A stretch of DNA of 37,824 nucleotides from a virus: IMG/VR virus record IMGVR_UViG_3300007960_000062, positions 1 to 37,824 of that record, one strand, 5' to 3'. The first letter of the stretch is position 1, and every line of letters begins with the position of its first letter. Below the pieces are notes generated by a model. That model made no database searches. It saw nothing but the letters and a program-made list of their open reading frames with translations, and was not told where the DNA came from. The translations under genes and the position numbers were made by a program. Of this stretch, positions 3,643-36,264 are shown in pieces.

Positions 3643-3808
3643 GGGCGACCTCGTTCGATTTCTTGATGACCTTGGCGATTGCTTTCTTGCCGCCAATCGA
3701 ACGCTGATACATATTGTTGATGCCAAGCGCGGTGAGCGCAGCCAAGCCGACAGCCACCATGCGCCCCATGAATGAGCCTGTTACGGCCCGAAATAGTGCC
3801 CATATCAT
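3548..3808 (-). CDS. Rz: i-spanin (Rz-like) inner-membrane protein
   Basis: The 86-residue protein has one transmembrane helix at about residues 14-31 (MGRMVAVGLAALTALGI). A periplasmic domain rich in Lys, Arg and Glu follows (KKAIAKVIKKSNEVAHERDKK), likely a coiled coil. This matches the single-pass i-spanin architecture, though the periplasmic part is shorter than in lambda Rz. The start overlaps the endolysin stop in ATGA. The o-spanin gene begins inside it. The two proteins would form the spanin complex that completes lysis of a Gram-negative host. Assignment rests on architecture and gene overlap, not on sequence similarity. Confidence 0.75.
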   Translation of the reverse strand: MIWALFRAVTGSFMGRMVAVGLAALTALGINNMYQRSIGGKKAIAKVIKKSNEVAHERDKKVRKIRRNISPNTAWKRLRTEYANTD

Positions 3809-4710
3809 GTGTCACCTGAAGGCTGATAATTCCCGTTTTCGTAGCTCTCACGCTTCCAGTGCTTGATGGCTTCGCAAATCAGCCAACCGAACACGCAAGC
3901 GCCTATCACGACTGGTGCACTGTATGCCTTGACGAAGCCGGTAAACACGTCGAGATAGGTTTTTGTGGCTTGGATGTTCGAAATACTGACCGCCTCAACA
4001 ACGGACGTACTAACCGCACCGCCCGCCATCAGGCCGCCAAGGATGTTGGTCGATTTGTATTCGCGGGACTTCTTGGCCAGCGTCTTGTGCGTCGATTCAA
4101 CTGCAACCGCCATGCCCTCATCGAGCGTCGGCGCCGTGCCTCCCAGCGCCGCGATGTCAATCAAAGGCGTCGGATCAATCTTTCGGCCTGGCGAGACTTG
4201 GTAGTGGCCTGCAATGTCGATACCGGGATAGGCATCTCGGATCGACGCCACAACCTCATTGATCGCGGCGTGCTGTTCTGGCGTGTAGGGTAGCCAGATA
4301 TGCCCCCGGCCATGATGCGGCGTGTCCTTTGCCACCAAGCCGTCCCGCTCACCGAACCACTCGCGATAAAACGCCATCGCCTTCTTTGGCGTTCCCTTCA
4401 ATTCGCCTGGATCAACAAGCCCGATCGAGATCGAGAAGCTGTTGCACCACTGCCTGCCCTTCCAGCTTGACCGGCCAGCATGGTTCACACGGCGATTGAG
4501 CGGCGCCAACTGTACAATCTCACCGTCCCGCTCGATGATAATGTGATAGGCAACCTTTCGCGCGTTCTTCTTGCAGTAGTCAACTGCCGATCCCTTATCA
4601 ATCCGCGTGCCGGTGCCGTGCACAACGATGAGCGTCGGCTCGATGACATCGCCGATATGCGCCGTTTGATCATATCGGGCACCGTCGAGCTTGTGATCGG
4701 TGATGTTCAT
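3805..4710 (-). CDS. Endolysin, N-acetylmuramoyl-L-alanine amidase with C-terminal membrane domain
   Basis: The start ATG at 4710 overlaps the upstream stop (ATGA), giving 301 residues. Residues about 20-180 form an Ami_2/PGRP-like zinc amidase. IVVHGTGT contains the first zinc histidine (His31), NHAGRSSW the His77 region, and GHYQVSPGRKIDP the His169, Lys177 and Asp179 positions expected at the active site. It would cut the bond between muramic acid and the stem peptide. Residues about 222-242 and 263-281 are hydrophobic (NILGGLMAGGAVSTSVVEA and VVIGACVFGWLICEAI). The enzyme therefore appears membrane-tethered at its C-terminus, unlike a soluble lysozyme. There is no N-terminal signal peptide, so export or topology must depend on this C-terminal module or on the holin. 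It sits directly before the spanins. Confidence 0.88.
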   Translation of the reverse strand: MNITDHKLDGARYDQTAHIGDVIEPTLIVVHGTGTRIDKGSAVDYCKKNARKVAYHIIIERDGEIVQLAPLNRRVNHAGRSSWKGRQWCNSFSISIGLVDPGELKGTPKKAMAFYREWFGERDGLVAKDTPHHGRGHIWLPYTPEQHAAINEVVASIRDAYPGIDIAGHYQVSPGRKIDPTPLIDIAALGGTAPTLDEGMAVAVESTHKTLAKKSREYKSTNILGGLMAGGAVSTSVVEAVSISNIQATKTYLDVFTGFVKAYSAPVVIGACVFGWLICEAIKHWKRESYENGNYQPSGDT

Positions 4711-5750
4711 GCCGACGCCGCCCTTTGCTTCTGGCGCTCTCGCACGCGCGCCATAACGCGCTCCAGGGCCTCCATCGTCTCCTTCATGCCGTCCGGGTTT
4801 GTTGTCGCGCTGGCTGTTGCCTGGAACGTCTGCGCCGGACGGGGCGGTGCTGGCTCTGCATGAAGCGGCTGAGGCGCCGGCAACCATTCTCGGCTGGCGA
4901 ACGTGTTCTGATCCTCTTCAAGAGGCGCGCCACCGCGGAGCCAGCTTGAACCATACCCGAGGCCGCCAGAAAGAATGGTCAGACCACAACCGAGAACAAG
5001 CGTCATGACAAGGTAAACGAATTCCTGCACACTCTTATTCGGCGCCAAGTCCCAGTTCGCAATTTTTCCGATCTTGTTCGTGATCACATCGATAGGCGAC
5101 ACCTTGCCAGGCGTCTTCTTTGCTTCCGCTCTGACCGTGGCTATGTCCTTGCGGATCGTCGCAAGCTCAGAGTTCGCCTGCTCTACGGTCAAGGATACAG
5201 CCAGCTCATCGCGCTCCTTGCGCAATTCGTCATCGATGCCTTCACAAAGACGCCCGCACCCGCCTCGCTTGGACTCGCGTTCGCGCTTTGCTTCGAGGTC
5301 TGCAATGTTTTTCTTGATGCTGCGCGTGTCCCGCCAGACTTTCACATTCGAAGTCTTTTCAAGCAATGTCGCCTCTCGCCTTTCCAGCGAGGCCAGGCGT
5401 GAATGGACATCCTTCGAAACCTTATTGGCATGGTTCGCGTCAAGCCGCGATCCTTCTCGCATGGCAAACAAAGCGCCGGTATTCGACCCGGCATCCATGG
5501 CGCCGAACAGAACACCGCAGATCAAAAAGATGCGAAGCGGCACCTTCGCCTTACGTTGCTCGGCATAGCTGACAAGCAGGAAAAACAACGGCACAGCCGC
5601 AGAAATCAACGCGCCGCCGGCGGCATTGAAATATTGCGCAAAACGATCGTCGCCGCCCGTCACCCAGCCAAAATATGCCGTGAAACCCATTGATATGCCG
5701 GCCGCCGCAAACGCAGCCCGGCGCAGCCAATCAGACATTGAGGCACGCAT
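4707..5750 (-). CDS. Membrane protein with large coiled-coil domain, unknown function
   Basis: The 347-residue protein has three N-terminal membrane helices (about residues 13-31, 45-63 and 72-88). A long charged coiled-coil region follows (about 112-212) with a Cys-containing break (RGGCGRLCEG), then a fourth helix (about 244-262) and a Pro/Ala-rich tail ending in a basic helix. The even number of helices places both ends on the same side. A perfect GGAGG lies seven bases before the ATG. Its stop overlaps the endolysin start. I do not recognise the family. Candidates are a lysis regulator, a holin partner or a superinfection-exclusion protein. The coiled coil between the TM blocks would lie in one compartment. 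Confidence 0.75.
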   Translation of the reverse strand: MRASMSDWLRRAAFAAAGISMGFTAYFGWVTGGDDRFAQYFNAAGGALISAAVPLFFLLVSYAEQRKAKVPLRIFLICGVLFGAMDAGSNTGALFAMREGSRLDANHANKVSKDVHSRLASLERREATLLEKTSNVKVWRDTRSIKKNIADLEAKRERESKRGGCGRLCEGIDDELRKERDELAVSLTVEQANSELATIRKDIATVRAEAKKTPGKVSPIDVITNKIGKIANWDLAPNKSVQEFVYLVMTLVLGCGLTILSGGLGYGSSWLRGGAPLEEDQNTFASREWLPAPQPLHAEPAPPRPAQTFQATASATTNPDGMKETMEALERVMARVRERQKQRAASA

Positions 5751-9713: not shown

Positions 9714-12560
9714 CTATCTGACCGAAACAGAGGCGCCTAGATCGGGATTGCGCCGCGGTTCTGTCTCGCCGGGTGCCCACCAATACTCTTGCTTGAAATC
9801 TTTCTGACGCTTGCGCATCATGCGCCTAAATGCCCGATCAGCTTCCGGGTCAGCGTAGCGGCGCAGTTGATCGAGAACCATGCGCTCCCAGATCAAACGC
9901 GAATACCAGAGATTGCCGCCTGGCATGTTCTTTTTGAGAAAGGCAACGGACTCGCGGCCGATGTTCGTGTCCTTGCCTTCCATGCCCTCGGCGATGTTGC
10001 CAATGATCAGGTTTCGCGCTGGATCGACGATGGAGCCGACCACCGGACCTGCCAGGGTATCCGCCAGGCCGCCACCAAAGCGGTTGACATCCGAAAACAA
10101 GAAATCACCATAGATGCCGAGACCGCCGCCCTGCATGAACGCGGCCCCCCAGAATTTGGGATCATCCATAGACCGCGGGTCTTTGCCGTTGATCAGTTCC
10201 TTGATCTGGATCGCGAGAGCGCCAAGGATGGTCAGATTGATGAGAAGCGGAATGGCCCGAGCGGCCCCTCCAGCCTTGCCAAGCAAGCCCTGTGCACGTG
10301 CCACATCCTGATAGATCGATGTGCCATGCAGGAACATCACCCCGACAGAGAACCCCTTAAATTGCATCGCCAATCGGATAGCTTCGCCCGATGGCGTACC
10401 CGGCGCCGTACCAGCCTGCATGGCAGCGCGCGCACGAACTGTTGGCTCCGGCACCGCCATTTTAGTAAAGCGGTGGATCATCGCCAGAACCTTCAATGCC
10501 AGCTCGCGATCACCAGCCGCCTCGACGTCTTTCGGACGAAGAAACGAGACGCCGCGCTCTGTGTGAACAGGCACTGCTTTCAATCGATCCCAGTCTGCGG
10601 CGTTGAACCCATTGCGCTCCAGAAAACCGCGCCATTCCGGCGTCAGTTCATCGAATGGCAGCGCCAGCGTATCAACCATGTGCGCCTGCAGGTCGAGCCC
10701 GAACGCATGCTTGCCCGCAGTCGTCAGAGGGGAAAGCCCTGACAACGCCAGCACCCGATCCGCGATATATCCGGTTGTTCCGGCGAAATCCGTTGCCGCT
10801 GCATAGCGCGCCTGCTTGTCCATGACGTGCATGGCACTATCGAGGATCAGGCCAGCCCGCACCCCTGCTTGCTGGCCACCCGGCATCAACTGGCGCACAT
10901 ACCCCGTAATGACTGACTTGATGATAGACCGCTTTGGCATGCCAGCCAAAACGCGCGTAGCCTTCTGAAAGCTAACGTCCGTAATAGCTGATACAGCCGC
11001 CGAACCCAACTTTGAGGCTGTCGAGATATTTCGAAGGCCCGCCATGGTGTTGGCCAGTGTGCGATTGACCGGCGTATTCTGCGAGCCTCGCATAATATCG
11101 AACACGCTATCAGCCGACTTGATCCAGTCCCGCGCCCGGCTCATTGGATCGTCAAAGTGGTCCGGCATTTCCTGGCGAACCTTGGCGAGCAAGTCCGCCA
11201 TTTCATCCATGACCGCCTTGTTCATTGCGACTTGTGAACCAAGCGGCTCATCCGCGTCCGGATCCGGCCATTCCATGCGGCTCAGGTTGTCGAGCATGTC
11301 AGAGCCCAACCGCTCGACTTCGGCGTTCTTCGCATCGATCTGCTTTTGCAATCGCGTTGCCGTTTGCTGATTGGCCCCCTTGATCCGGCGGCGAAGGTCA
11401 TAAAGCTCCGTCGTGGCCTTGGCTAGTTCATATTGACGCTCTTCCATCGACTGCGGCGCCTTGGCGAGCGTGCGGCGTATCCGTGTCAGCAGTTCGTCAC
11501 GGATTACATTGTTGGGCTTCGCGCGGGCCGCATGCGCCTGCACAAGCTGCTTCAAGTACGTCATCATAGCAACCGGGTTAGGCCCCAGAACTTCCATGAA
11601 GGCGATGTCGCGGGTCATGGTTGAGATGTGCCCCATGATCGATGACCATGGATCGCCTTCCCCGAAATCCTTCTGGTACTTGAGCCATGAATCCGCATCC
11701 TTGAAATGCAGAAAGCGATGGTCGGCGTGCTGTTTGAACAGAGCACCCTTGCCCATGATCGCCCCGGATGGTTCACGGGTTGACCAGCCATCCGTCGTGA
11801 TTCGCTCCCATATGAATTCAAGCGATTCCTGGAGATCATCGTCAGATAGTCGTTGGCCGGTGAGCGGATGACGCATGCGTTCACGATCAAGCAATGGCGT
11901 GATATACTCAACCCACTGGCCCCGCCCCGCTTTGATTAGCGCTTCCTGGTTGTGGTGCTGCGGTGCGCCGTAGCGGTCAAGCTTTCCGATTGCGCCACCG
12001 GCTGCGTTGAACTGCTGGCGTAGTCCTTCCATGGTGTCAGATATGACCATGGCCAGCTCGGCAGCCGATTGATCGCCGGTTTTCTCGCCGAACATTTCTC
12101 GCACGACATTATCCAGCCTTGCTGCGGTGCGCCCGAAACGGCGTGCCATGTCTCCGGTGATCTTGGCTTTGGCTGAGAACTCGTGCAGCGCGCGTTCCAT
12201 CTTGGCGTGCACCATACCACGGATTGCCATCATGCGTGACTGTACGTCCTGGAATCGTGCCTGCCCGTTGTGCTCAAGCAACCACATCAGAGCTTCTGCC
12301 GGATCGCGATATCCGGAGGCATTGACGTGGTTCAAGATGGCTCGCTCGTTGCGTTGCCGTGCGTTCTCGGTCAGCGCGGCACGGCGGGCTTTATCCGCTG
12401 CGGCAGCTTCAAGTTCGGCCACCATCTGATCCCGCGCGGCGCCGGTTGGAAGCACCTGCTTGGCCAGGTTGTCATAGCGCTTCTTGAGCGCATGGGCGTC
12501 TTCCAGCGTGATCTCGCCCGCTTGGTGAAGCCGATCAATGCAGTCTTTCAATCCAGCCAT
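9714..12560 (-). CDS. Large internal virion / DNA-ejection protein (948 aa)
   Basis: The protein is predominantly helical and charged for its first 550 residues. These include long stretches like ELEAAAADKARRAALTEN and MEERQYELAKATTELYDLRRR. A more hydrophobic later part follows, with the segment AIPLLINLTILGALAIQI around residues 768-785 and GLGIYGDFLFSD shortly after. Size, position between the other ejection genes and the tail fibre, and the mixed helical/hydrophobic character fit the internal core proteins of podoviruses, which leave the capsid first and form a channel through the envelope. The family resembles the large core proteins of BPP-1-like phages, recognised only by style and context. 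Start and stop overlap the neighbouring gene in TAATG, so production is coupled to the polyvalent protein upstream. Confidence 0.72.
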   Translation of the reverse strand: MAGLKDCIDRLHQAGEITLEDAHALKKRYDNLAKQVLPTGAARDQMVAELEAAAADKARRAALTENARQRNERAILNHVNASGYRDPAEALMWLLEHNGQARFQDVQSRMMAIRGMVHAKMERALHEFSAKAKITGDMARRFGRTAARLDNVVREMFGEKTGDQSAAELAMVISDTMEGLRQQFNAAGGAIGKLDRYGAPQHHNQEALIKAGRGQWVEYITPLLDRERMRHPLTGQRLSDDDLQESLEFIWERITTDGWSTREPSGAIMGKGALFKQHADHRFLHFKDADSWLKYQKDFGEGDPWSSIMGHISTMTRDIAFMEVLGPNPVAMMTYLKQLVQAHAARAKPNNVIRDELLTRIRRTLAKAPQSMEERQYELAKATTELYDLRRRIKGANQQTATRLQKQIDAKNAEVERLGSDMLDNLSRMEWPDPDADEPLGSQVAMNKAVMDEMADLLAKVRQEMPDHFDDPMSRARDWIKSADSVFDIMRGSQNTPVNRTLANTMAGLRNISTASKLGSAAVSAITDVSFQKATRVLAGMPKRSIIKSVITGYVRQLMPGGQQAGVRAGLILDSAMHVMDKQARYAAATDFAGTTGYIADRVLALSGLSPLTTAGKHAFGLDLQAHMVDTLALPFDELTPEWRGFLERNGFNAADWDRLKAVPVHTERGVSFLRPKDVEAAGDRELALKVLAMIHRFTKMAVPEPTVRARAAMQAGTAPGTPSGEAIRLAMQFKGFSVGVMFLHGTSIYQDVARAQGLLGKAGGAARAIPLLINLTILGALAIQIKELINGKDPRSMDDPKFWGAAFMQGGGLGIYGDFLFSDVNRFGGGLADTLAGPVVGSIVDPARNLIIGNIAEGMEGKDTNIGRESVAFLKKNMPGGNLWYSRLIWERMVLDQLRRYADPEADRAFRRMMRKRQKDFKQEYWWAPGETEPRRNPDLGASVSVR

Positions 12561-15500
12561 TTATCGCTTACACGCCCCCACTGCTTCGCCTACCTGGTTC
12601 ATGCGGGAGGCTTCGCCCATCTCCATGGAAGCGAGAGTGTGAGCGTCTACGTTCGTCATGGCTTCAACTTGTGGCAGCGTTTCTGCTCCGCTCTGCCACT
12701 TTCCATCCACTCCCCGGAACCACCCGGTCTCACGCCAGACATCTTCACGGCTGAGACCTTCTGCCTCCATCTGCTTGGCTTGGTCGAGTGCACGGTGATC
12801 TGCTGTTGCTGCACGCTCGCCTGCGAAGGAATACATCAGCTTTGATGATCCTTCATGAGCGGGATCAAAGGCGGCGTTTACAGAACGGATGTTGGAGGGG
12901 TCGAAGATAATTATAGTATCGGAAACAATATGGCTACTATTATTTCCAGGATCAATAACATTTCGAACAATTAGCGCATCATGGCCTGCGTTCATAGCTT
13001 CACTGGTTAACGTTGGAATATCTTTTGCAATATCAGCCCCTTCGAGTGCCGCTTGAGAGCCACGATACACTCCGTCATTAACATTCGTCCACATCCGGCC
13101 GGCCGCATCTATCTCCAAAGGATTCGAATAACGCAAATATACTGGAATAATATTTTCACCTTCCGGTGACTTTCCAACTCTCGCGCTTTCTTCCTTTCGC
13201 AAACGCCTAAGATTTTTAAGAATTTCACCCTGGTTTTTGTTTTCGAAATCAAACCGCGCCTTGTCAAGCTCCCGATCAATGCGCTGTCCTTCTCGTGAAG
13301 GGATTCCTAGTGGCCTCGTGTAAGACGATGCTATGTCAGGAGACATGCTAAACGCATAAGCACCTTCTGGATTTGCTGATTTTGACCCGCCACCCGTGCC
13401 AAACGCATCGAAATCCTCGATAGTCCCATGATACCACACTTGCTCAGTATCAAACCCCATATCCCGAGCACGTTGCAACCTGGCTTCCTGGCTCATGTCC
13501 AGACCCGGAGTGATCGGCTTGTCCGCAAACATTGCCATCCGATCTGCTTCCATCTGTGGCGACCGAGCGCCAACCTCACCGCTCTCAATCCGGCGGAACA
13601 CATCTTCAATGCGGGCGTATCCTTTCATGCCGAGCATCTGCCGGACTTCGGAAACGAACTTCACGATGCGGTCAATGATGCCATCGATCGTGGCCCCGAA
13701 GCTGCGGCCCGCTCCCACTCGATCAGCAAACATCTCTGCAATGGTTTCTTCCATCAACGCGGATTCGAGACGGTCAGGATCGTTGTAGCGGCGGCCGTAG
13801 ACCTCACCATATTTGCCATCAACACCATATTGCTCACGCATGCCGTTCTCGCGGGCGAAACGTGTGAAGGCGTCCCATTCCTCATCACGCAATAGGCCCA
13901 ACTGGCGATAGGCATGTATTTCCTCGTGGCGTGCCATCCGCACCGGGTCATTCGACGCCAGTGATACCTTGATCAGCATTTCATCTGGATCGAAGTAGCC
14001 GTCGAGGGCATAGCTTTGACCCGACCGGTTATCACGAAACACAAGCCGATCTTCGACTTCAAAGCGGACTTCATCAGGCAAACGTGCTATGATCTCATCG
14101 AGGCCGCGCCGGACATCCGGCCAGTCGTATGTGGCAAGCGGTGTCAGTGACCGGGCCTGCGGATCGCCCATTGACGTGAGGCCGCCTTCCATGGCCTGCT
14201 GGCGCAGTTGCATTGCCATTTCTTGCTGGCGCGGGTCGGGCGCACGCGGGTTTGCAAACAGCGGCTGTCCTTCGTCCATTACCGCCTCTCTCACTTCCAC
14301 CCGCGACCGTTCAAGGTGTTCTATGATCGCGGACTTGGTGATCTGTTGTTTCGAACCAAGGGCAACTGAAGGCTTTCCCGCCTGTTCCATGGCGTATGAC
14401 GTATTCTCTACAATCTCTCGACCAGCGCCGGATGACGCATGAAAATAACGATCTCCGACCTTGAAAAAGCTATCATAAGAATCGAGATCAATCGTCTTGT
14501 CGATACCCTCAATGATTGATGTGACTTGCTCTGCGGCATCAATCGGGTCAGAGGGAAGTGGACGGTTTCCGAGGTCATAAACCAAATCAATATCACGCCC
14601 CACTTCACCGCGCGCAGTACTACCAACAAGATGAACATTAACAATATCTTTGCCGATCAGGTTGCTGGCATATTTATCGAGTGGTGACTGCGCTAGAACT
14701 TTATCCAGCCCCACCGCATCAATCTCTGCTTCCTTCACCCCTGCCTTGCGCAGCTGGCTCAGCATCTGCTCTGGCGTGCCCTTCTCCTGCTTTATAGAGC
14801 GGGCTGCTTCTAGCGCTTTGGAGTAGTAGCCAAGCTCATCCTGACGGATCAGGTTGCGGCCCATGTCGGTGAAGTTGCCAGGCGGCTGGTTGCCGGAAAG
14901 CGCGAACATGAGGTTCGAACTGTCAGAGCGGGCAGGATCAAAGGCGGCGTTGACTGAGCGGATGTTCGAGGGGTCGAGCACAATCAGTTCATCAGGATAA
15001 TATTGCTTGCCATTCGCATCAAACTCTAAAATGTCATGATGATCCTTTAGTACGATGGTGTCGGCTCCATCATCAATTGCCTTTTTTACAAGGGACACCA
15101 TTCTTTCTTGGTTTTCCGGGATATTCATATCTATGGTTACTTGATTTCCGGGCTTGATATACACATCCGTAATCGCACCCGGCGCATAGGCACTATCGAA
15201 AGATGGTTTCCGACCTATGATTTTATCTAGTAGCGTTCTAAGCTTCCGCTGACGCCGATAATTATATTTATCCGCATGACGCTGAGAATACCATTCAGCC
15301 CGTTTTCGAGATTCAGAAAACCACACGCCTACTATGTCACCAGGATTTCTATTATATTTGTTGGCAAAAGACAGATCAAAAGACTTCGGCGCCACTGCTG
15401 ATCCATTATACCATACTTGTTCCGTATCGAACCCCATGTCCCTTGCTCTTTGGAGACGCGCTTCTTTCGACATATCAAGGCCGGGCGTGACGGGGTCGCG

Positions 15501-17774
15501 GTCGAAGTTGGAAAGCGCGAACATCGTATTGTCGCCGCCGATTTCGCCGTCTTCAATCTCCCGCGCCATGCGCTGTGCATCAATCGCATCACGCAATTGC
15601 CCGTCCGGCACACGCTCGCCAGCACCATCCAGAAGTTCTTCCGTGAGCGCGCGGGCTTCCGGGCCGTTCGGGTCATCGATCAAACGCGGCTCATCGGACG
15701 AGCGTCGTGTCAGAGCGTCAACGCCTTCGTTATCCAGCGCATCCATAATCCGGCGATCGAAGGCATCCATGACGCGCTGTAGCGGCTGGCCTTCATCTGC
15801 CGCCCGTGCCGCCTGGCGCATGAACCGATTGGCAACCGTACCCGGCGTCATCATCGCCCGCACCACAGCACTGTCCATTTCATCGATCGGCAGCGCGCCA
15901 AGAAACTCCGAACCGACCGGCCCCAAGCCATCAAGGCCATTGCTCACGCCGCCCAGAATAATCGCTTGCGTCTGCTCCATGTCGGCTTCGTCGCGAAGCG
16001 CATCACCGATTTCTTGGCGAACCGCTGCCGGACTATCGTCCTCGAGGCGCCCAACCCGCTCGGCAATGCCAGCGTGCCGCGTTGGGTCTTCCACCAGATC
16101 AGCCACAAGAGCGCCAGCACGCGGGCTGAGATCACCCGCTTCGACCATATCGAATGCGTTATCCGACAGGCGGGATAACAGCCGCGCCGTCGTCAGTGTG
16201 TCGGGCAGGTTTGAATCGATCAGGTCCGGCATACCACGAAGCAACCGCGCCGCTTCCATGCCGCGTATTGTGCCGTCCTGCAGGTTCTTCTTGATGCCGA
16301 CCTTGCGCGCATCATCGAGCGTCCAGCCATCCTTCTCACGCAGCAGGATCGCTTCTGCATCGGCTTTCACGTCTTCTGCATCCGCCATGGCTTTGCGCTG
16401 CCGACCGTCAACCAGAATACGCTTGCCGCCTTGTTCCTCGAACGCGATCACGCGGCCGACGTTATCCGTGTCCAGGCGGCCTTGCCGTTCCAGATCGGTC
16501 ACACGCGCCCTGAGACTTTCGACATCGGCTTCCGCCTTGCGCAGATCGAGCATCACCTTGGATGCCTGCCTATCGCCGATCGTGAACTCACCCGGCAGTT
16601 CGGCATCATCTGCCAGCCTTGGAGATCGTGCATCCGGCGTCGGGTCAGGGATACGCGGTGGCGGTTCCGCTTCGTCCATCGTGGAGCGGTATGCTTGCAG
16701 CAATGCGCGCTCGCGGGCTCCATCGTCAACGCCTTCTAGATGAACCGTTGTCATCAGGTCAACATAGTCTTCAGCGCCATTCAACGCGCCGCGAACCGCT
16801 GGTTCTTGGTCAATCCCTACTTTGGCCGCGAACTCACGCGCTGCATCGATATCACCGGATTCCACACGCTCGATCAGCTCCGGTTCGATCTTTGGTGGTG
16901 CTTCTGGCGCCGCTGCTGGTTCCGAATCCCTGACCTTCGGCTCCTCTATGCCCAACACCCGACGCCCTGCCTGGACGCCGGCCTTCCCGCCTCGCCAGAT
17001 ACTACGGCCGCCTGCATCAACCAGAAACCCGAACGCCGCGGCTGACGCAACATCCATCGCCGCGTGGCCGATCCCGGACGGCAAACCGATCTGATTGCGC
17101 TGGTATTGCACATAAGGCTGTAAGGCCGCTTCCACGGCCGCATTATAGGCACCTGATCTCAATGCCATCATGGCAATGCCTCGAAGCCCCGGCCCCGCCG
17201 CCCCCATCGGACCAACCAACATCGCTGCGGCGTTCGTTGGATCAACAAGCATGGCGCCCATGCTGCCCGCCATCATAGCCGGATACTTGAGCCAGCCCTG
17301 ATATGCATCCATGCGTTCTTGCATCGTCTGTTCTGCACGCCGGCCGATCAATGCCGCATCTGAGCGAATGTCAGCTTCAGGATCAATGTAGTTCTTCAGC
17401 TCTGGATGTTTCTCAAACAGCTCCAGCTCACGCTTGCGGAAATCATCATAGATCGACCCGGTGCTGCCATCGACAAGACGATTGACGGATTGTGCCAGCC
17501 GCCCGAAATTCGTCATGCGCTCCGGGTTTTGCAGCTCCTGTCCGGTAACGCGCTTGTATATCTCGATGCGCTTATCATATGCTTCTTCAGAGCGCGCCCA
17601 GCTTGCGTTGACGTTACGGCCTAGTGCATCAGCTTTGAACGTCGAAGTAACGATATCCCACGTTGATGGTTCATTGTTCCCGACAAATGCGCCATCCTCA
17701 TCGACAATCGACTCCGACTGAACCGAGTCTTGCGCATCACGGAGGTTGATTGTGCTGATTGGTCCGAAGTCCAT
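12561..17774 (-). CDS. Giant polyvalent virion protein: ParB/DdrB-like, nucleotidyltransferase, zincin and two ART-like domains
   Basis: The ATG at 17774 (MDFGPISTI) follows AAAGG by seven bases, giving 1737 residues. Residues about 165-260 are hydrophobic (SMGAMLVDPTNAAAMLVG). About 410-640 resembles the DdrB-type ParB domain (RVIAFEEQGGKRILVDGRQR near 440-460). About 760-960 is a first ADP-ribosyltransferase-like cassette starting DTEQVWYNGS. About 1045-1110 has VHLVGSTARGEVGRDIDLVY, the GS...DxD signature of polymerase-beta-type nucleotidyltransferases. Residues 1283-1287 are HEEIH with a later Glu-rich ETIAEMFADR, a zincin-like metallopeptidase. About 1419-1650 is a second ART-like cassette starting DTEQVWYHGT. 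Such mosaics are known as polyvalent proteins, delivered with phage DNA to act on the host at once. Catalysis is inferred from motifs only. ART segments are visibly more AT-rich than their surroundings. Confidence 0.85.
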   Translation of the reverse strand: MDFGPISTINLRDAQDSVQSESIVDEDGAFVGNNEPSTWDIVTSTFKADALGRNVNASWARSEEAYDKRIEIYKRVTGQELQNPERMTNFGRLAQSVNRLVDGSTGSIYDDFRKRELELFEKHPELKNYIDPEADIRSDAALIGRRAEQTMQERMDAYQGWLKYPAMMAGSMGAMLVDPTNAAAMLVGPMGAAGPGLRGIAMMALRSGAYNAAVEAALQPYVQYQRNQIGLPSGIGHAAMDVASAAAFGFLVDAGGRSIWRGGKAGVQAGRRVLGIEEPKVRDSEPAAAPEAPPKIEPELIERVESGDIDAAREFAAKVGIDQEPAVRGALNGAEDYVDLMTTVHLEGVDDGARERALLQAYRSTMDEAEPPPRIPDPTPDARSPRLADDAELPGEFTIGDRQASKVMLDLRKAEADVESLRARVTDLERQGRLDTDNVGRVIAFEEQGGKRILVDGRQRKAMADAEDVKADAEAILLREKDGWTLDDARKVGIKKNLQDGTIRGMEAARLLRGMPDLIDSNLPDTLTTARLLSRLSDNAFDMVEAGDLSPRAGALVADLVEDPTRHAGIAERVGRLEDDSPAAVRQEIGDALRDEADMEQTQAIILGGVSNGLDGLGPVGSEFLGALPIDEMDSAVVRAMMTPGTVANRFMRQAARAADEGQPLQRVMDAFDRRIMDALDNEGVDALTRRSSDEPRLIDDPNGPEARALTEELLDGAGERVPDGQLRDAIDAQRMAREIEDGEIGGDNTMFALSNFDRDPVTPGLDMSKEARLQRARDMGFDTEQVWYNGSAVAPKSFDLSFANKYNRNPGDIVGVWFSESRKRAEWYSQRHADKYNYRRQRKLRTLLDKIIGRKPSFDSAYAPGAITDVYIKPGNQVTIDMNIPENQERMVSLVKKAIDDGADTIVLKDHHDILEFDANGKQYYPDELIVLDPSNIRSVNAAFDPARSDSSNLMFALSGNQPPGNFTDMGRNLIRQDELGYYSKALEAARSIKQEKGTPEQMLSQLRKAGVKEAEIDAVGLDKVLAQSPLDKYASNLIGKDIVNVHLVGSTARGEVGRDIDLVYDLGNRPLPSDPIDAAEQVTSIIEGIDKTIDLDSYDSFFKVGDRYFHASSGAGREIVENTSYAMEQAGKPSVALGSKQQITKSAIIEHLERSRVEVREAVMDEGQPLFANPRAPDPRQQEMAMQLRQQAMEGGLTSMGDPQARSLTPLATYDWPDVRRGLDEIIARLPDEVRFEVEDRLVFRDNRSGQSYALDGYFDPDEMLIKVSLASNDPVRMARHEEIHAYRQLGLLRDEEWDAFTRFARENGMREQYGVDGKYGEVYGRRYNDPDRLESALMEETIAEMFADRVGAGRSFGATIDGIIDRIVKFVSEVRQMLGMKGYARIEDVFRRIESGEVGARSPQMEADRMAMFADKPITPGLDMSQEARLQRARDMGFDTEQVWYHGTIEDFDAFGTGGGSKSANPEGAYAFSMSPDIASSYTRPLGIPSREGQRIDRELDKARFDFENKNQGEILKNLRRLRKEESARVGKSPEGENIIPVYLRYSNPLEIDAAGRMWTNVNDGVYRGSQAALEGADIAKDIPTLTSEAMNAGHDALIVRNVIDPGNNSSHIVSDTIIIFDPSNIRSVNAAFDPAHEGSSKLMYSFAGERAATADHRALDQAKQMEAEGLSREDVWRETGWFRGVDGKWQSGAETLPQVEAMTNVDAHTLASMEMGEASRMNQVGEAVGACKR

Positions 17775-18081: not shown

Positions 18082-20985
18082 CTATTCCTGCACAAACCAT
18101 TCCTTGCGCCGACGCTTCAGGATCGGGCGCACCGTTGCAAAGTCCAAAACATAGTCTTGACCGTCCGGGGATTTATACGTTTCAAGAACCCCATCTTCGC
18201 CCTCGCGCGCCAGAATATATTTTCCTGTACCCGTAGAGATATAGGAAGCGTTTTTGAGTTCTGCTTCGGTCATATGCCGTCCGGTCAATGTTACCGGTCT
18301 AACCGGCAAATCTTTGATCTTCATCAGGGCCATGACATCATCAAAGCGATCCGTCCGAACATCATGAGGCACAATCACCTTATGCTGTGTAACGCCGTCC
18401 CATCCCGCGCCACGGTAGCCGACGCCACCATAGGAAACCCCACCCACCTCGCGCGCACCGATCAATTCGCTCAAAATCTTTCGATACTCCGAACTGTTAT
18501 AGTCAGCACCGCCGCTCCAACCTTTTTCGCGCGCCTTCGCTTCATATGCCGCATTGGCAAGAGCGATGATAGTATCGCCCGCCGTAGTGGAATGTTTGAA
18601 CACATCACCGAACACAGTCGTCATGTCCGCACGTGCTGCCGTTGCTGAAGGTGCCATGGGCTTGAACGTCTTGCCCAGCACTTTAGGCAACATCATGCCC
18701 TGCTCCGCATAGCTTGCGACCTGCGTCTTCCCCATCACAACGACATGACCGCCAAGCATGGCCGCTTGCGGTGCCTGATCGGACAATTCCTTCAACGCCA
18801 CGCGCGCGGTGTCTTGACCCCACACCGCAGTCATGTCCTTGGCGAGCGCGCCGATCGACAGCTTGCCGCTTTCCAATGCCTTGGCGTAGGCATCACGCTC
18901 CGTCTTGGTAAACACCTGCATTGGTATTGCAAACCGCTGCGACGTAGCTTGAGCCACTTCCAGACGGGTTTGCATGGATTCAGGATTACCGATGCGCAGC
19001 GGCTGCACGTCCTGACCGGTGGCGCGGGCTGCCCATTGGATCGCGTTATCCTTGAGTGCCGTGCGTTGTGCTGCAACGAACTTTTCGACAGTCTCAAGCG
19101 TCTTGCGCTGGCCGACAGTTGGGGGCGACTTCGCAAAGCGCTCGCGCATGTCTGTCAGATACTGCTCGTTGAGAGCAACCGGGTTCTGCTGAAGCGTCGA
19201 TGTCAGCTTTTGAAACCCGACAAGGCCATTGTACTCAGCAGCCAAGTCCTTATTGCCGCTCGCTGCAATCATGCCACGCAATCCCTGCATCTGGACCGCC
19301 GGCAACGAATAGCCTTCCGCCGCGTTGTCCTTCAGTTCCTTGATCATGCCGACAACAGCGCCTTGGAATCGGGCCTGGTATTCCGGCATCTTCTGCATAA
19401 GGGCGCGTTGCAGCATCGTGCCGGATGATTGCGGTGATTGGGCTGTCTGCGTGCTTGTGGCTGACGGCGTTTCGCCTGCAACCTGCGTCGATCTGCCAAA
19501 TCCATTCTTTCGGATATACTCAACCGCATCCATAGCCTCAGTTGCTTTTCTATGGCCGACCGCAACCTCGCCATGACCAAAAACATTCTTTTCAGAAAAT
19601 CCATGCTGCTGCGCCAGCTGGGCTGTAAGAGCATGCGCCGCCTTGATCTGAGCCGGTGTCGCCTTCCCTCCTTTCGGGGTCATAAGGCCGATGCCGATCG
19701 AGTTGCGGTTGCTGAGATACCTTGCCGCATCACCATCTCGCCCTCGACCCCGGCCAGCGTGATTCATTACACTATCGCCAGCGAAATCAATCACCTTGCC
19801 GTTGCGATCGATGTAGTAATTATATCCTGTGTTCGACTTATTCGCCCATGACGCCAAACCATCCATTTGGGTGCCGCCTTCTGTGTAGTGCATGATGACA
19901 CCACGAACAGGCCGCGTCCTCGGATGTCCTACCGTGCGGCGTCCTTTGTATTTTTCAATCGCCACCTCATACGCTATCGCTGCCTGCTTCTGGTCCACCT
20001 TGCTCGGAGTGGGTGGCATCTTGTCTTGTGGGCGTTCTGCTGCCTGCGGCTCCGGCGGTGTAATCCGCCCCAACGATGTGCCCGGCTTTTGTGCTTCATC
20101 TTGCGGCCCAACACCGGGCGGCGGCGTGTCGCCTTCCTGTATAGTGCTTTCTTGCGGCCCTACGCCCGGCGGCGGGACATCTGCCTGGCTTGCCGCGTTA
20201 TCCGGCGCCTGGTTTTGCGTCTCGCCGTTGATTATCCGTTGTGCAATGGACAGAGCCCGCGCCGCGCCCGCCCCACCATAGGACTTAGACAAGCGGTCAA
20301 GCAGTGACACCGCGGCTTTGGTATTCAAGCCTCGCAGCTGATCCTTGATTTGGTCCGGCAGCTTCAGTTCATTGATGATCGCATCTGTGCCCTGCTGCAC
20401 AGCCGTAAACCGCTGCCCGAACTTCTCTTCAAACTGCGGATCGGTCGGGTCGATATAATACGGGTCTTTCGGATCGAACGTGCGGTCGAATTTGGCCCAT
20501 TCCGATGTGACAGCCGATTGCGTGCGGTTGACCGTGCGCTGGCGCACAAACATATTGCCATCGTTCATCGCACGGTTGCGATACGAACCGCGCAACCGCT
20601 CTTCCCATATCTGATGCTTTAGACGATCAGATTCATTTCGAAATGTTACCTTGCCTCGCAACTCATTGAATCGGCCTTCGTTGTATTCAGCACGCTTTGC
20701 CTGCCAATCGTTCGGATCATCCTTATCAACGTTGTAGTTCGCCTTGGATTGCAGATAGTTCTCCTCAAGCCCGTTGGCGACCTGGATACGCTTCAGCTGA
20801 TCTTCGAGCGCCGCGTTCTCGTTGTCCGTGCCGAACGCGCCTTCGAGCCCAGAGCCGAGCTGGCCAATCCCGCGGCCAAGCTGCTGCATTGCCCGCCCCG
20901 GCGCCGTGCCGTAGCTTGCAGGGATATGCGGTTGACTTTGGATGTTGAGCGCGATCGCGGGATCAGCGCGCGGGATTTTGACCAT
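18082..20985 (-). CDS. Virion ejection protein with embedded peptidoglycan amidase domain (967 aa)
   Basis: Residues about 1-260 are charged and helical (GLEENYLQSKANYNVDKDD and the segment after it). About 265-340 is a Pro/Gly/Gln linker containing two PPPGVGPQ repeats. About 355-495 is an Ami_2/PGRP-like amidase: VIMHYTEGG with the first zinc His, NHAGRGRG, SIGIGLM and FGHGEVAVGHRK with a late His. The rest (500-967) is helical, with a more globular C-terminus. A wall-cutting domain inside an internal virion protein lets the phage open the peptidoglycan during DNA entry, comparable in role to the transglycosylase of T7 gp16. This amidase is distinct from the endolysin at 3805-4710. The gene follows the gp14-like gene with no gap. 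Confidence 0.83.
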   Translation of the reverse strand: MVKIPRADPAIALNIQSQPHIPASYGTAPGRAMQQLGRGIGQLGSGLEGAFGTDNENAALEDQLKRIQVANGLEENYLQSKANYNVDKDDPNDWQAKRAEYNEGRFNELRGKVTFRNESDRLKHQIWEERLRGSYRNRAMNDGNMFVRQRTVNRTQSAVTSEWAKFDRTFDPKDPYYIDPTDPQFEEKFGQRFTAVQQGTDAIINELKLPDQIKDQLRGLNTKAAVSLLDRLSKSYGGAGAARALSIAQRIINGETQNQAPDNAASQADVPPPGVGPQESTIQEGDTPPPGVGPQDEAQKPGTSLGRITPPEPQAAERPQDKMPPTPSKVDQKQAAIAYEVAIEKYKGRRTVGHPRTRPVRGVIMHYTEGGTQMDGLASWANKSNTGYNYYIDRNGKVIDFAGDSVMNHAGRGRGRDGDAARYLSNRNSIGIGLMTPKGGKATPAQIKAAHALTAQLAQQHGFSEKNVFGHGEVAVGHRKATEAMDAVEYIRKNGFGRSTQVAGETPSATSTQTAQSPQSSGTMLQRALMQKMPEYQARFQGAVVGMIKELKDNAAEGYSLPAVQMQGLRGMIAASGNKDLAAEYNGLVGFQKLTSTLQQNPVALNEQYLTDMRERFAKSPPTVGQRKTLETVEKFVAAQRTALKDNAIQWAARATGQDVQPLRIGNPESMQTRLEVAQATSQRFAIPMQVFTKTERDAYAKALESGKLSIGALAKDMTAVWGQDTARVALKELSDQAPQAAMLGGHVVVMGKTQVASYAEQGMMLPKVLGKTFKPMAPSATAARADMTTVFGDVFKHSTTAGDTIIALANAAYEAKAREKGWSGGADYNSSEYRKILSELIGAREVGGVSYGGVGYRGAGWDGVTQHKVIVPHDVRTDRFDDVMALMKIKDLPVRPVTLTGRHMTEAELKNASYISTGTGKYILAREGEDGVLETYKSPDGQDYVLDFATVRPILKRRRKEWFVQE

Positions 20986-21471
20986 CTATCCGATCTTCAA
21001 TGCTGCGCCAAAATTGCCGCCGCCAAGCCCCTTGGCAGCACCGCCGAGACCGCCAAGCAACGTGCCGGCAGCGGCCAGCTTGCCAGCCTTGCGCTGTGAC
21101 TTGGCCTCGTATTCCTCCTGCCGCGCCTTGTTCTCATGCGCGACAGCCTTGGATTCCGCATTCGTGTAATTGGTCGATTGATCAATGTTGCGAGCTTCTG
21201 CGGTATCCGTGAACACCGACATAGCCGAGCCAAAGAAAGGATCAACGCCGGCCGCTGAATATCCCGCCGTCTGTTGACCCTGGAGCTTGTCGTATTTCTC
21301 GCCGATACGCTCGGATTCCTGCAAGCCTTCCTGGCGCCGCGAGCGCGCGTTGATCTTCTCGACCTTCGCATTGTATTCGTGATTCGCCGCCTGTGCGTTC
21401 GCGGCCTGCATCTGGCCGGCCGCCGACACTGCGGCGCCAACCAAGCCAAGAGCGGCGGCAGGGGCGCACAT
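20986..21471 (-). CDS. Small internal virion protein, T7 gp14-like
   Basis: The 161-residue protein starts MCAPAAALGLVGAAVSAAG, a hydrophobic helix. It continues with a charged Ala/Gln/Glu-rich helical body (YNAKVEKINARSRRQEGLQE) and ends with a Gly/Ala/Leu-rich hydrophobic stretch (LAAAGTLLGGLGGAAKGLGG). This membrane-active layout and its place directly after the tail tube B gene match T7 gp14 and related internal core proteins, which insert in the outer membrane at ejection. The start overlaps the upstream stop as TGATG. The stop is adjacent to the start of the amidase-containing ejection gene, so the three are probably translated together. Confidence 0.78.
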   Translation of the reverse strand: MCAPAAALGLVGAAVSAAGQMQAANAQAANHEYNAKVEKINARSRRQEGLQESERIGEKYDKLQGQQTAGYSAAGVDPFFGSAMSVFTDTAEARNIDQSTNYTNAESKAVAHENKARQEEYEAKSQRKAGKLAAAGTLLGGLGGAAKGLGGGNFGAALKIG

Positions 21472-28169: not shown

Positions 28170-30064
28170 CACACCACCGGTTCATCTTCAGGAAGCAGCG
28201 CTTCAGGATCAGGCATACCTTCGCCGAGTGCCGCCATGCTTTCCGGCATCTGGCCTTCCACCAACTGCGCGAGTTCTGCCTGTGCTTCTGGGTCTTGGCT
28301 GACGTTCTGCTGGAATGCCTGAATCATCGCGCCGATATCCATACCGCCTTCACCGGCCGTAGCGCCGGCTTGGCTCAGTGCCTGTGCAGCCTGACCGCCA
28401 TCCTTGAGCATGCCCGCGACCGGGCCGCCCATGTTGATCATCTGTTGGGCTTGCTCCATCTGCGCACCCTGTTCCATGGCTTCCTCGTTCTTGAGCAAGT
28501 CAGGATCGTTGTTGAACAGATCCCAGAGCCATGAAATCAGCTTGTCGAGGTCAACGCGCTTCTGGATAAGCTGCGGTCCCATCTCTTGGCCGGCCAGCTG
28601 CAACACGATGCCGAGCGCCTGCATGACCTGGTTGGCTTCCTGCTGCTTCTGAGCGGTCGCAACCGGGCTCACAAACTCAACCGTAAACTCTTTGTCTTCG
28701 AGCACCTGCGGCGGCTTCGGCAGCAGGCCATCACGATTGAGAATACCGAACACCCGCGTAATCAACGGGCCGAGCATTTCGCTTTCGAGACGGCCAACCA
28801 GAGGCCCGAACAAGCGCATCATTTCAGAAGTGCGCTGCACGACCTCGGTCGCTGTCATGTTTGCGCGATCGGTCATGCGCATCAAGTCGGCAAAAAACGT
28901 GCGCAATATCTGCTCTTTCAGAAGCATGATGTCTTCTGATATCGCCTTGAGCCCTTGCAGGCTGACCGGCTGTAGCATTACCCCTTCGCCAGGATTGCCG
29001 CGCCAGTAGTTGATGCCGCCCGGCACCGTCCGCGTCTGGCCCGTCACACCATCCGAGCGCAGCCAGAGCGGCGGATCGGCTGCCTTGTGCATCAGCTTGA
29101 TCTTGGTCAGCACCATCGCCTGGAGCATCTTGACGTCAGGCAGCGCAATCATGCCCGGCGAGCGGCCATAGACTTCGCCGCTGTATTTCGACCAGCGCGC
29201 CACCTGATAAGGAAATTCCGGGAAGCCGCTTTCGCCGAGCTTGTGGCATGCTTCATGCTCGAAATAGCACGACGCGAACGGCATGTTTTTTGCGTTCTTC
29301 GTTCCTGGGTCTCTGTCTTCCCGAGGATAGATCGCGTGGATGACCTTCACCTTGTCATCGTATTTTTGTGCCTCGTAGAGCTCCTTGACCTGATCCGAGA
29401 CTTTCCAGCCCATCCGGTTTTGCATCTGGTACATCTGCCGGACGGTGTACTCGGTGCAGCGGAACAGCGTATCAACGATGCCGTCCACATTCTCGGCGAT
29501 GACGCATTCAGCAAGCGGCCGGCACTCAAACAGAAGGCCCCCGCTTTCCTGCTGACCGACGAACAGCACGGCCGTTCCGAACGAGGCCAGATCGAGATAG
29601 ATTTCGTGAAGGCTGGTTGTGAAGTTGGTCCCCGGCGCATAAATGCGCTGCCACATGATCTGCTCAACGTCGGAGAGATATTTCTGCACCTCCGGCATCT
29701 CGTTGATATCAATCAGGTTACCTTCTTCATCTTCCATGCCGCTGTGGCCAACCATGCGCAGCGAGAACCATTTGCTGGCCGGGTTGGTTGCCATGCCGTG
29801 CAGGCCGGCAGCGAGCATCTCAACGCCCATGATCCCGGTCGGATCATAGACTTTAGTCATCTTCTTCTCGCCCTGGGTGCGCATGCCGACGAAATCGATC
29901 TTACGCGGCGCACACAGCTCCGCTATTTCCTGGCAATGGGCCTCCATATTGGAACGCTCAGTTGAACTTTTAAGACCATCGTAGCGGCGCTTGAGCTCCT
30001 CCATCTTGGCTTTATCGACATCCTTGCCACCTTCACCGCTGGCATAAGACATATTGCGAGCCAT
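28169..30064 (-). CDS. Portal (head-tail connector) protein
   Basis: The 631-residue protein matches podovirus connector proteins of the T7 gp8 type. Near the N-terminus are LKRRYDGLKSSTERSNMEAH and GMATNPASKWFSLRM. In the middle are YQVARWSKYSGEVYGRSPG and LKIKLMHKAADPPLW-like (TKIKLMHKAADPPLW), and in the second half DLMRMTDRANMTATEVVQR. These are all strongly conserved in the family. The C-terminus is Gln/Met/Gly-rich and acidic. The protein forms the twelve-fold ring through which DNA enters and leaves. Its SD, GAGG, lies within the last codons of the HNH gene directly upstream, and the two overlap by one base (TGATG). Confidence 0.95.
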   Translation of the reverse strand: MARNMSYASGEGGKDVDKAKMEELKRRYDGLKSSTERSNMEAHCQEIAELCAPRKIDFVGMRTQGEKKMTKVYDPTGIMGVEMLAAGLHGMATNPASKWFSLRMVGHSGMEDEEGNLIDINEMPEVQKYLSDVEQIMWQRIYAPGTNFTTSLHEIYLDLASFGTAVLFVGQQESGGLLFECRPLAECVIAENVDGIVDTLFRCTEYTVRQMYQMQNRMGWKVSDQVKELYEAQKYDDKVKVIHAIYPREDRDPGTKNAKNMPFASCYFEHEACHKLGESGFPEFPYQVARWSKYSGEVYGRSPGMIALPDVKMLQAMVLTKIKLMHKAADPPLWLRSDGVTGQTRTVPGGINYWRGNPGEGVMLQPVSLQGLKAISEDIMLLKEQILRTFFADLMRMTDRANMTATEVVQRTSEMMRLFGPLVGRLESEMLGPLITRVFGILNRDGLLPKPPQVLEDKEFTVEFVSPVATAQKQQEANQVMQALGIVLQLAGQEMGPQLIQKRVDLDKLISWLWDLFNNDPDLLKNEEAMEQGAQMEQAQQMINMGGPVAGMLKDGGQAAQALSQAGATAGEGGMDIGAMIQAFQQNVSQDPEAQAELAQLVEGQMPESMAALGEGMPDPEALLPEDEPVV

Positions 30065-30591
30065 CAGGCGGTCCTCGCGAATTCACCGCGCAAGGCTATA
30101 TCAGCTTCGCGATACGCTTCATGGGCAAGTTCTGGCGTGTCAAAGGCTCCCAAATACTTCCTTTTTCCATTCACCATGATACGAGCGGAGTATCGACCAA
30201 GTTGCCTGTCCCAGTAGATACCCTTTAAACCAGTCGAGCTCGTGCAATAGGCTTCCGAATTTCCGTTGTTCTGCCACTTATCAGCAAGACGTAGGTTCGA
30301 TATTCTATTGTCACACCGGTCCCCATTGATGTGATCAATGTCCTTGCACGGCCAAATGCCGTGGACATAAAACCAAGCGAGACGATGCGCGAGATAACGA
30401 TCGTACCCAATATTGATCCGCCAATAGCCGTTGGTCGCTAATCCACCCATCGGCTTTCTCATGCGGCGACCAACGCTTGGAACACGCCACCAAAACAAAC
30501 CGCTAGCAGGGTCATACCGCACTTGTGCAACTAGATGGTCGTGCTCAATCAATTTCCAACTAGCCCCCAAGGATCGGCGTCGTGCCGGCAT
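30064..30591 (-). CDS. HNH homing endonuclease with AP2 domain, upstream of portal
   Basis: The protein shows the HNH-AP2 phage pattern: VRYDPASGLFWW, YLAHRLAWFYVHG, IDHINGDRCDNRISNLR with the catalytic DHxxGxxxDN region, and LKGIYWDRQLGRYSARI, where the AP2 domain begins. It ends EFARTA. It would cut DNA at a target near its own insertion site. The ATG at 30591 overlaps the preceding gene by 32 bases, so the true start may be downstream; a TTG near 30548 (encoding LIEHDHL) would remove the overlap. Its terminal codons provide the GAGG ribosome site for the portal gene. It is about the same size as its relative at 35749-36264. Confidence 0.88.
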   Translation of the reverse strand: MPARRRSLGASWKLIEHDHLVAQVRYDPASGLFWWRVPSVGRRMRKPMGGLATNGYWRINIGYDRYLAHRLAWFYVHGIWPCKDIDHINGDRCDNRISNLRLADKWQNNGNSEAYCTSSTGLKGIYWDRQLGRYSARIMVNGKRKYLGAFDTPELAHEAYREADIALRGEFARTA

Positions 30592-35748: not shown

Positions 35749-36264
35749 CTACGCGGTCCTTGCAAAATCACCGTGATATTTCTTCGCTGCTGCGCAGTAC
35801 ACTTGATAGGCTTCCGCTGCACTATCAAAGCGTCCTAAATGGATTTGTTTCCCGTGCACCGTCACCTTAGCCTGGAACTTATTCCTCGTTCGGTCCCATG
35901 AAACCCCCTTGTACCCTGACGTGTTTGCAGCTTTCAGCGGCACATTCCACAGGTTCTGTGAACGCGTTGCCTCCCTCAAGTTGCAAATCCGATTATCTGC
36001 GCGGTCCCCGTTGACATGGTCAATGCAAAACCGCGGAAAACGACCATGTACGTAGAACCAGGCCAGCCGATGCGCAAGATATCTCGTGCCGCGAAACCCT
36101 ATCCTTACGTAACCGTTCGAAGGGCTAACATTCTTGAGAGGCACACCAAGCACTAGGGCGTTAGCCGATCTTCCGTTTTCGTTGCGATACCTACGTATCC
36201 AAGAAAATTCACCAGTTTCCGGGTCATACTTGAGGTGACGCCGGAGATCGTCGAGATCAATCAT
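35749..36264 (-). CDS. HNH homing endonuclease with AP2 domain (second copy)
   Basis: The 171-residue protein has LKYDPETGEFSWIR, YLAHRLAWFYVHG, IDHVNGDRADNRICNLRE and SGYKGVSWDRTRNKFQAKV. It ends HGDFARTA, the same architecture as the protein at 30064-30591. The two are clearly homologous yet well diverged in most positions. The ATG at 36264 overlaps the preceding stop by eight bases. Its terminal codons again supply the SD region for the next gene. Confidence 0.9.
   Translation of the reverse strand: MIDLDDLRRHLKYDPETGEFSWIRRYRNENGRSANALVLGVPLKNVSPSNGYVRIGFRGTRYLAHRLAWFYVHGRFPRFCIDHVNGDRADNRICNLREATRSQNLWNVPLKAANTSGYKGVSWDRTRNKFQAKVTVHGKQIHLGRFDSAAEAYQVYCAAAKKYHGDFARTA

What the first reader, a model, noticed from the sequence alone, without database searches (positions are those of the whole stretch)
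12561..17774. Giant ejected polyvalent protein combining ART, nucleotidyltransferase, ParB-like and zincin motifs
One 1737-aa ORF in the ejection-protein cluster has a ParB/DdrB-like region (VDGRQR near residue 457), a polymerase-beta-type nucleotidyltransferase signature (GSTARG...DIDL near 1050), a zincin HEEIH (1283-1287) and two ADP-ribosyltransferase-like cassettes. Known polyvalent proteins carry such toolkits to counter host defences at infection. The particular set here, two ARTs plus a nucleotidyltransferase in one virion protein, may define a multi-effector injection system.
Basis: partly seen in the sequence, partly recalled or inferred. Interest (0 to 1): 0.85.

Follow-up and report, generated by a model that had tools for sequence, protein, structure and literature searches.

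The report
Phage ejection protein carrying effector domains
This is a 1,737-residue internal virion protein of a short-tailed phage, probably injected with the DNA, that carries several enzyme-like domains; such 'polyvalent' proteins are known, and the new points are a nucleotidyltransferase-like domain spliced into a shared helical module and a second ADP-ribosyltransferase that looks inactive.

Summary
The ORF is real but lies on the MINUS strand (17774 to 12561, 1737 aa). It occupies the fixed slot of a T7-gp16-type ejection protein in a podovirus structural operon; the same gene order occurs in three relatives, and in one the next virion protein is fused to it. It is a phage-type polyvalent protein (Iyer et al. 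2017). LPD23 (E 4e-18) and the C-terminal ART (E 4e-10) pass Pfam cut-offs. The zincin domain is supported by a conserved HExxH...E and a confident model. The other ART (residues ~765-953) is homologous, but Asn replaces the strand-1 His seen in every compared ART, so it is probably inactive. The nucleotidyltransferase (1032-1137) has no detectable close homologue. Its Pol-beta signature still outscores 20,000 shuffles and 2,509 other phage segments, and it interrupts a conserved helical module that is continuous in most relatives. A Pol-beta NTase was reported only from conjugative-element polyvalent proteins, so its presence in a phage ejection protein is the unusual part. The ParB-like region is conserved in relatives, but ParB homology was not confirmed. 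'Two ARTs' is not novel: up to 12 copies are known. Verdict: new variant of a known kind; function inferred, not shown.

The parts
12561..17774 (-). 1737-aa polyvalent internal virion (ejection) protein
   Evidence: Open frame from ATG with AAAGG upstream; conserved operon slot
16965..17279 (-). N-terminal stretch (res. 166-270) similar to T7-gp16-type internal virion proteins
   Evidence: phrog_342, E 1.5e-9; also shared with L009, L010, L002
15930..16622 (-). ParB-like region (res. 385-615, DGxxR at 456-460)
   Evidence: Conserved in L009, L014 (Ruegeria phage), L032, L034; no Pfam or PDB ParB match
14916..15482 (-). ART1 (res. 765-953): ART-like cassette, strand-1 His replaced by Asn (WYNGS)
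   Evidence: ART-PolyVal 18.9 bits, below cut-off; alignment of relatives; repeat of ART2 end
14682..14840 (-). N half of conserved helical module (res. 979-1031)
   Evidence: 83.1 bits to a model built from relatives only
14364..14681 (-). Pol-beta nucleotidyltransferase-like insert (res. 1032-1137), GSTARG-x4-DIDL, possible third Asp near 1095-1097
   Evidence: Pfam NTP_transf_2 and Polbeta are the top two hits, in register, sub-threshold; ranks first against 20,000 shuffles
14286..14363 (-). C half of the helical module (res. 1138-1163)
   Evidence: 16.8 bits in register; C-half model 20.8 bits against best shuffle 4.0
13545..14174 (-). Zincin-like metallopeptidase (res. 1201-1410)
   Evidence: HEEIH 1283-1287 and downstream EETIAE conserved in relatives; model pLDDT 90 and above over most of the domain
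12840..13505 (-). ART2 (res. 1424-1645): ADP-ribosyltransferase with WYHGT and FDP
   Evidence: PF18760 above cut-off; best structural matches are PARP-type ART domains, not significant in PDB, significant in BFVD
12696..12833 (-). LPD23 domain (res. 1648-1693)
   Evidence: PF18838, E 4e-18
9714..12560 (-). 948-aa internal virion protein, in frame after TAA-ATG; fused to the polyvalent protein in L010
   Evidence: phrog_684 E 1.5e-168; L010 fusion, 34.6% over 907 aa; junction
18082..20985 (-). 967-aa internal virion protein with Amidase_2
   Evidence: PF01510 E 4.8e-18; same slot in relatives
20986..21471 (-). 161-aa internal virion protein
   Evidence: phrog_418 E 1e-26

Best explanation
The protein is a T7-gp16-type ejection protein expanded into a phage-type polyvalent protein. 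It is made with the virion proteins, packaged as part of the internal core, and ejected ahead of or with the DNA; its N-terminal part and the 948-aa partner help form the DNA channel. After or during entry its zincin domain cuts the chain, releasing effector units. The most likely working effectors are ART2, which would ADP-ribosylate host proteins, and the NTase, which would transfer a nucleoside monophosphate to a host target. ART1 is a decayed copy kept as a spacer or binding module. Shown: gene position, operon conservation, fusion partner, domain homologies, loss of the ART1 His, insertion of the NTase-like segment in the helical module. Inferred: packaging, ejection, self-cleavage, and all catalytic activities and targets.
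For: Structural operon (tail tubes, internal virion proteins, polyvalent protein) is kept in three other contigs, with a 72% identical major head protein in one. N-terminal match to phrog_342; L003 carries the phrog_342 C-terminal region in the same polypeptide as its polyvalent domains; L010 fuses the 948-aa virion protein to it. ART2 and LPD23 over Pfam cut-offs. Zincin HExxH...E conserved and confidently modelled, with zincin peptidases among weak PDB matches. NTase beats all controls and sits in a clean module split. Literature describes polyvalent proteins as injected and processed by zincins (PMC5512222).
Against: No proteomic or biochemical data. The ART2 strand-2 Tyr column reads Ala, with a Tyr one residue earlier, so its activity is uncertain. 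The NTase has no close homologue and no structural confirmation (pLDDT 43). N4 virion RNAP and some plasmid polyvalent proteins are delivered uncut, so self-cleavage is not assured.
Confidence: 0.7

Rival explanations
1. It is mainly a structural ejection protein. The added domains are worn-down, interchangeable cassettes with little remaining catalysis, kept as filler or scaffold.
For: ART1 lost its strand-1 His; ART2 strand-2 Tyr column is not Tyr; the ParB-like region lacks the FQ(F/Y)K stretch seen in its relatives; relatives vary greatly in cassette content.
Against: Zincin HExxH...E and the ART2 His and Asp are kept; the NTase GS and DxD residues are kept.
Confidence: 0.2
2. The 1032-1137 insert is not a nucleotidyltransferase but an unrelated linker that happens to contain a GS-DxD-like string.
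For: No Pfam hit above cut-off, no homologues in viral, phage, plasmid or bacterial genome searches, poor model. Other relatives carry plain extensions at the same loop.
Against: Top two of 24,736 Pfam families are both Pol-beta families in register; highest score against 20,000 shuffles and 2,509 phage segments.
Confidence: 0.2
3. The gene is expressed inside the cell late in infection and is not ejected; for example it processes virion proteins or modifies the host during assembly.
For: A zincin next to virion genes could serve virion maturation; P1 DdrB is cut before packaging (PMC5512222).
Against: Position, gp16-like N terminus and fusion with a virion protein in L010 point to the particle.
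Confidence: 0.1

Closest known systems
Phage-type polyvalent proteins (Iyer et al. 2017, PMC5512222)
   Same: Large multidomain protein beside virion genes, with zincin, HYD-type ART and LPD23; presumed injected
   Different: Contains a Pol-beta NTase, which that survey found only in conjugative-element polyvalent proteins; one ART lacks the His; built on a T7-gp16-type ejection protein
T7 gp16-type internal virion protein (phrog_342)
   Same: Operon slot and a stretch of N-terminal sequence
   Different: No lysozyme domain found in it; carries effector cassettes; C-terminal virion part is a separate gene
Phage P1 DdrB
   Same: ParB-like segment and zincin in a virion-associated protein (by literature)
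   Different: Pfam ddrB-ParB model gives no match
IMG/VR contig 3300037882_000813 (L009)
   Same: Same operon; shares N terminus, ParB-like region, LPD23, zincin and helical module
   Different: Two zincins, no NTase insert in the part held; its contig ends inside the gene

Membership tests
Phage-type polyvalent protein | Several unrelated enzymatic or LPD domains in one chain | tested here: met
   LPD23 and ART-PolyVal over cut-off, zincin by conservation and model
Phage-type polyvalent protein | Encoded among virion genes | tested here: met
Phage-type polyvalent protein | Packaged and injected | not testable with these tools
   Needs virion proteomics and an ejection assay
ART-PolyVal / Tox-ART-HYD2 (ART2) | Sequence match over curated cut-off | tested here: met
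   41 bits whole protein, cut-off 31.2
ART-PolyVal / Tox-ART-HYD2 (ART2) | His strand 1, Tyr strand 2, Asp strand 5 | tested here: inconclusive
   His and Asp kept; Tyr column reads Ala with a Tyr one residue earlier
ART-PolyVal / Tox-ART-HYD2 (ART1) | His in strand 1 | tested here: not met
   WYNGS; His kept in all compared ARTs whose strand 1 is visible
Zincin-like metallopeptidase of polyvalent proteins | HExxH plus downstream Glu on a second helix | tested here: met
   HEEIH at 1283 and a downstream EETIAE, conserved in relatives; helices in model
Pol-beta superfamily NTase | GS...DxD signature and family similarity | tested here: inconclusive
   Signature present; sub-threshold Pfam, but first of over 22,000 controls
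Pol-beta superfamily NTase | Pol-beta fold | tested here: inconclusive
   Model too poor
DdrB-like ParB | Match to ddrB-ParB or ParB_N model | tested here: not met
   No match
T7 gp16-type ejection protein | Sequence and operon slot | tested here: met
   phrog_342 E 1.5e-9 over about 105 aa only; conserved order

The most novel reading that the evidence does not exclude
A podovirus ejection protein delivers an active minimal Pol-beta nucleotidyltransferase, inserted into a conserved helical hairpin that serves as a docking site for effector domains, and uses it with an ART to modify host proteins at the moment of infection; the boundary between phage-type and conjugative-type effector sets would then be porous.
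Probability: 0.35. Interest if true: 0.6.

Novelty: new variant of a known kind. Interest (0 to 1): 0.42.

Why it matters
Polyvalent proteins are thought to be among the first phage effectors to act in a cell, yet few have been tested. This one ties effector cassettes to a T7-gp16-type ejection protein through a conserved operon and a fusion in a relative, and shows a helical module that accepts inserts at one loop. It makes the delivery of NTase and ART activities by an ejection protein directly testable.

Tried and rejected
Whole-protein and NTase-only scans of viral and genome contigs found no close relative. A degenerate DNA pattern for the NTase signature gave only unrelated hits. Weak tblastn NTase hits in two sets of bacterial genomes (385 and 398) were chance matches. 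A single-sequence fold of 965-1165 failed (pLDDT 43). ParB was sought by Pfam, a family profile and PDB without support (the thermonuclease hits are weak and not accepted). The idea that two ARTs are new was dropped: up to 12 copies are published and L033 has two.

Full report
What is there. The window is a 37,824-base virus record. The virion genes read on the minus strand: terminase subunits, portal, a scaffold-like gene, major head protein, two tail tubes, three internal virion proteins and a tail fibre. The reported ORF is the minus-strand frame 17774-12561, 1737 aa with an ATG and an AAAGG just upstream. The plus strand of this stretch, read in the same register, is full of stops.

Setting. 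In three other viral contigs the order tail tubes, 161-aa and 967-aa internal proteins, polyvalent protein is the same; one of these shares a 72% identical head protein. In L010 a 3,529-aa chain carries zincin, ART, LPD23 and the helical module, and ends in the homologue of the window's separate 948-aa virion protein (34.6% over 907 aa). In the window the two genes are in the same frame, divided by TAA-ATG. The N-terminal part matches T7-gp16-type internal virion proteins (phrog_342, E 1.5e-9, about 105 aa). L003 joins its polyvalent domains to the phrog_342 C-terminal region. Together these make an ejection-protein role the best reading; packaging itself is not shown.

ARTs. ART2 passes the Pfam cut-off. 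ART1 scores 18.9 bits and shares its flanks with ART2 (LDMS..EARLQRARDMGFDTEQVWY and DPSNIRSVNAAFDPA; one end is an 85% DNA repeat). Iyer et al. define this clade by His, Tyr and Asp in strands 1, 2 and 5. ART1 reads WYNGS where every compared ART with a visible strand 1 has His. The strand-2 position is variable in this set (Y, F, W; Ala in ART2 with a Tyr next to it). So ART1 is probably inactive and ART2 possibly active.

Zincin. HEEIH and a Glu about 60 residues later (EETIAE) are conserved in most homologues from other contigs. With a 14-row alignment the domain is modelled at pLDDT 90 and above over most of its length. PDB matches are weak (best E 0.02) but consist almost wholly of PARP-type ART domains and zincin peptidases. 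Matches to viral models, several annotated as ART-PolyVal or large polyvalent proteins, are significant (36 at E 0.001 or better).

NTase. Residues 1032-1137 split a helical module (GYYSKALEAA...KGTPEQML...AGVKxAEI...VTRDEIxxHLEENRV) that is continuous in most of about 35 loci and has other extensions at the same loop in a few. A model built only from relatives matches the window in two pieces, 979-1031 (83.1 bits) and 1138-1163 (16.8 bits); for the second half alone the best of 1,000 shuffles scored 4.0 against 20.8. The insert contains LVGSTARG-x4-DIDLV and a possible third Asp near 1095-1097. Pfam's top two families are NTP_transf_2 (E 0.04) and Polbeta (E 0.17), in register but below cut-off. 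A profile of 39 NTases drawn from bacterial genomes scores the insert 15.6 bits, above all 20,000 shuffles (best 12.9) and all 2,509 other phage segments. No homologue of the insert was found in any collection searched. I take a Pol-beta NTase as probable, about 0.8, and unproven. [quoted passage not shown]

ParB-like region. It is conserved in L009, L032, L034 and Ruegeria phage 45A6 with an invariant DGxxR, but no ParB model or structure matches, and the window copy lacks the FQ(F/Y)K stretch of its relatives. ParB membership is not claimed.

Assessment. The finding is a good example of a known class with an unusual domain and one decayed domain, not a new system. The mechanism (ejection, zincin processing, ART2 and NTase modifying host targets) follows the published model for polyvalent proteins and is inferred here.

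Noticed in passing
12558-12563 (minus strand): The 1737-aa and 948-aa genes are in the same frame, separated only by TAA-ATG, while a relative (L010) has them fused; fission, read-through or sequencing error are all possible.
   Followed up: partly
18082-20985: The 967-aa internal virion protein has an inserted Amidase_2 domain (res. 357-480), likely to open the cell wall during ejection; a second amidase gene lies at 3805-4887.
   Followed up: partly
L010, protein residues 1864-1971: A second ART of a different clade (PF01129) in the same polypeptide as an ART-PolyVal domain.
   Followed up: no
L008, L024, L034, L037: The helical module has loop extensions of about 50-75 residues at or near the place where the window has the NTase; these may be other inserted domains.
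   Followed up: no
30064-30591 and 35749-36264: By eye, two HNH-endonuclease-like genes within or beside the packaging and structural genes; not searched.
   Followed up: no
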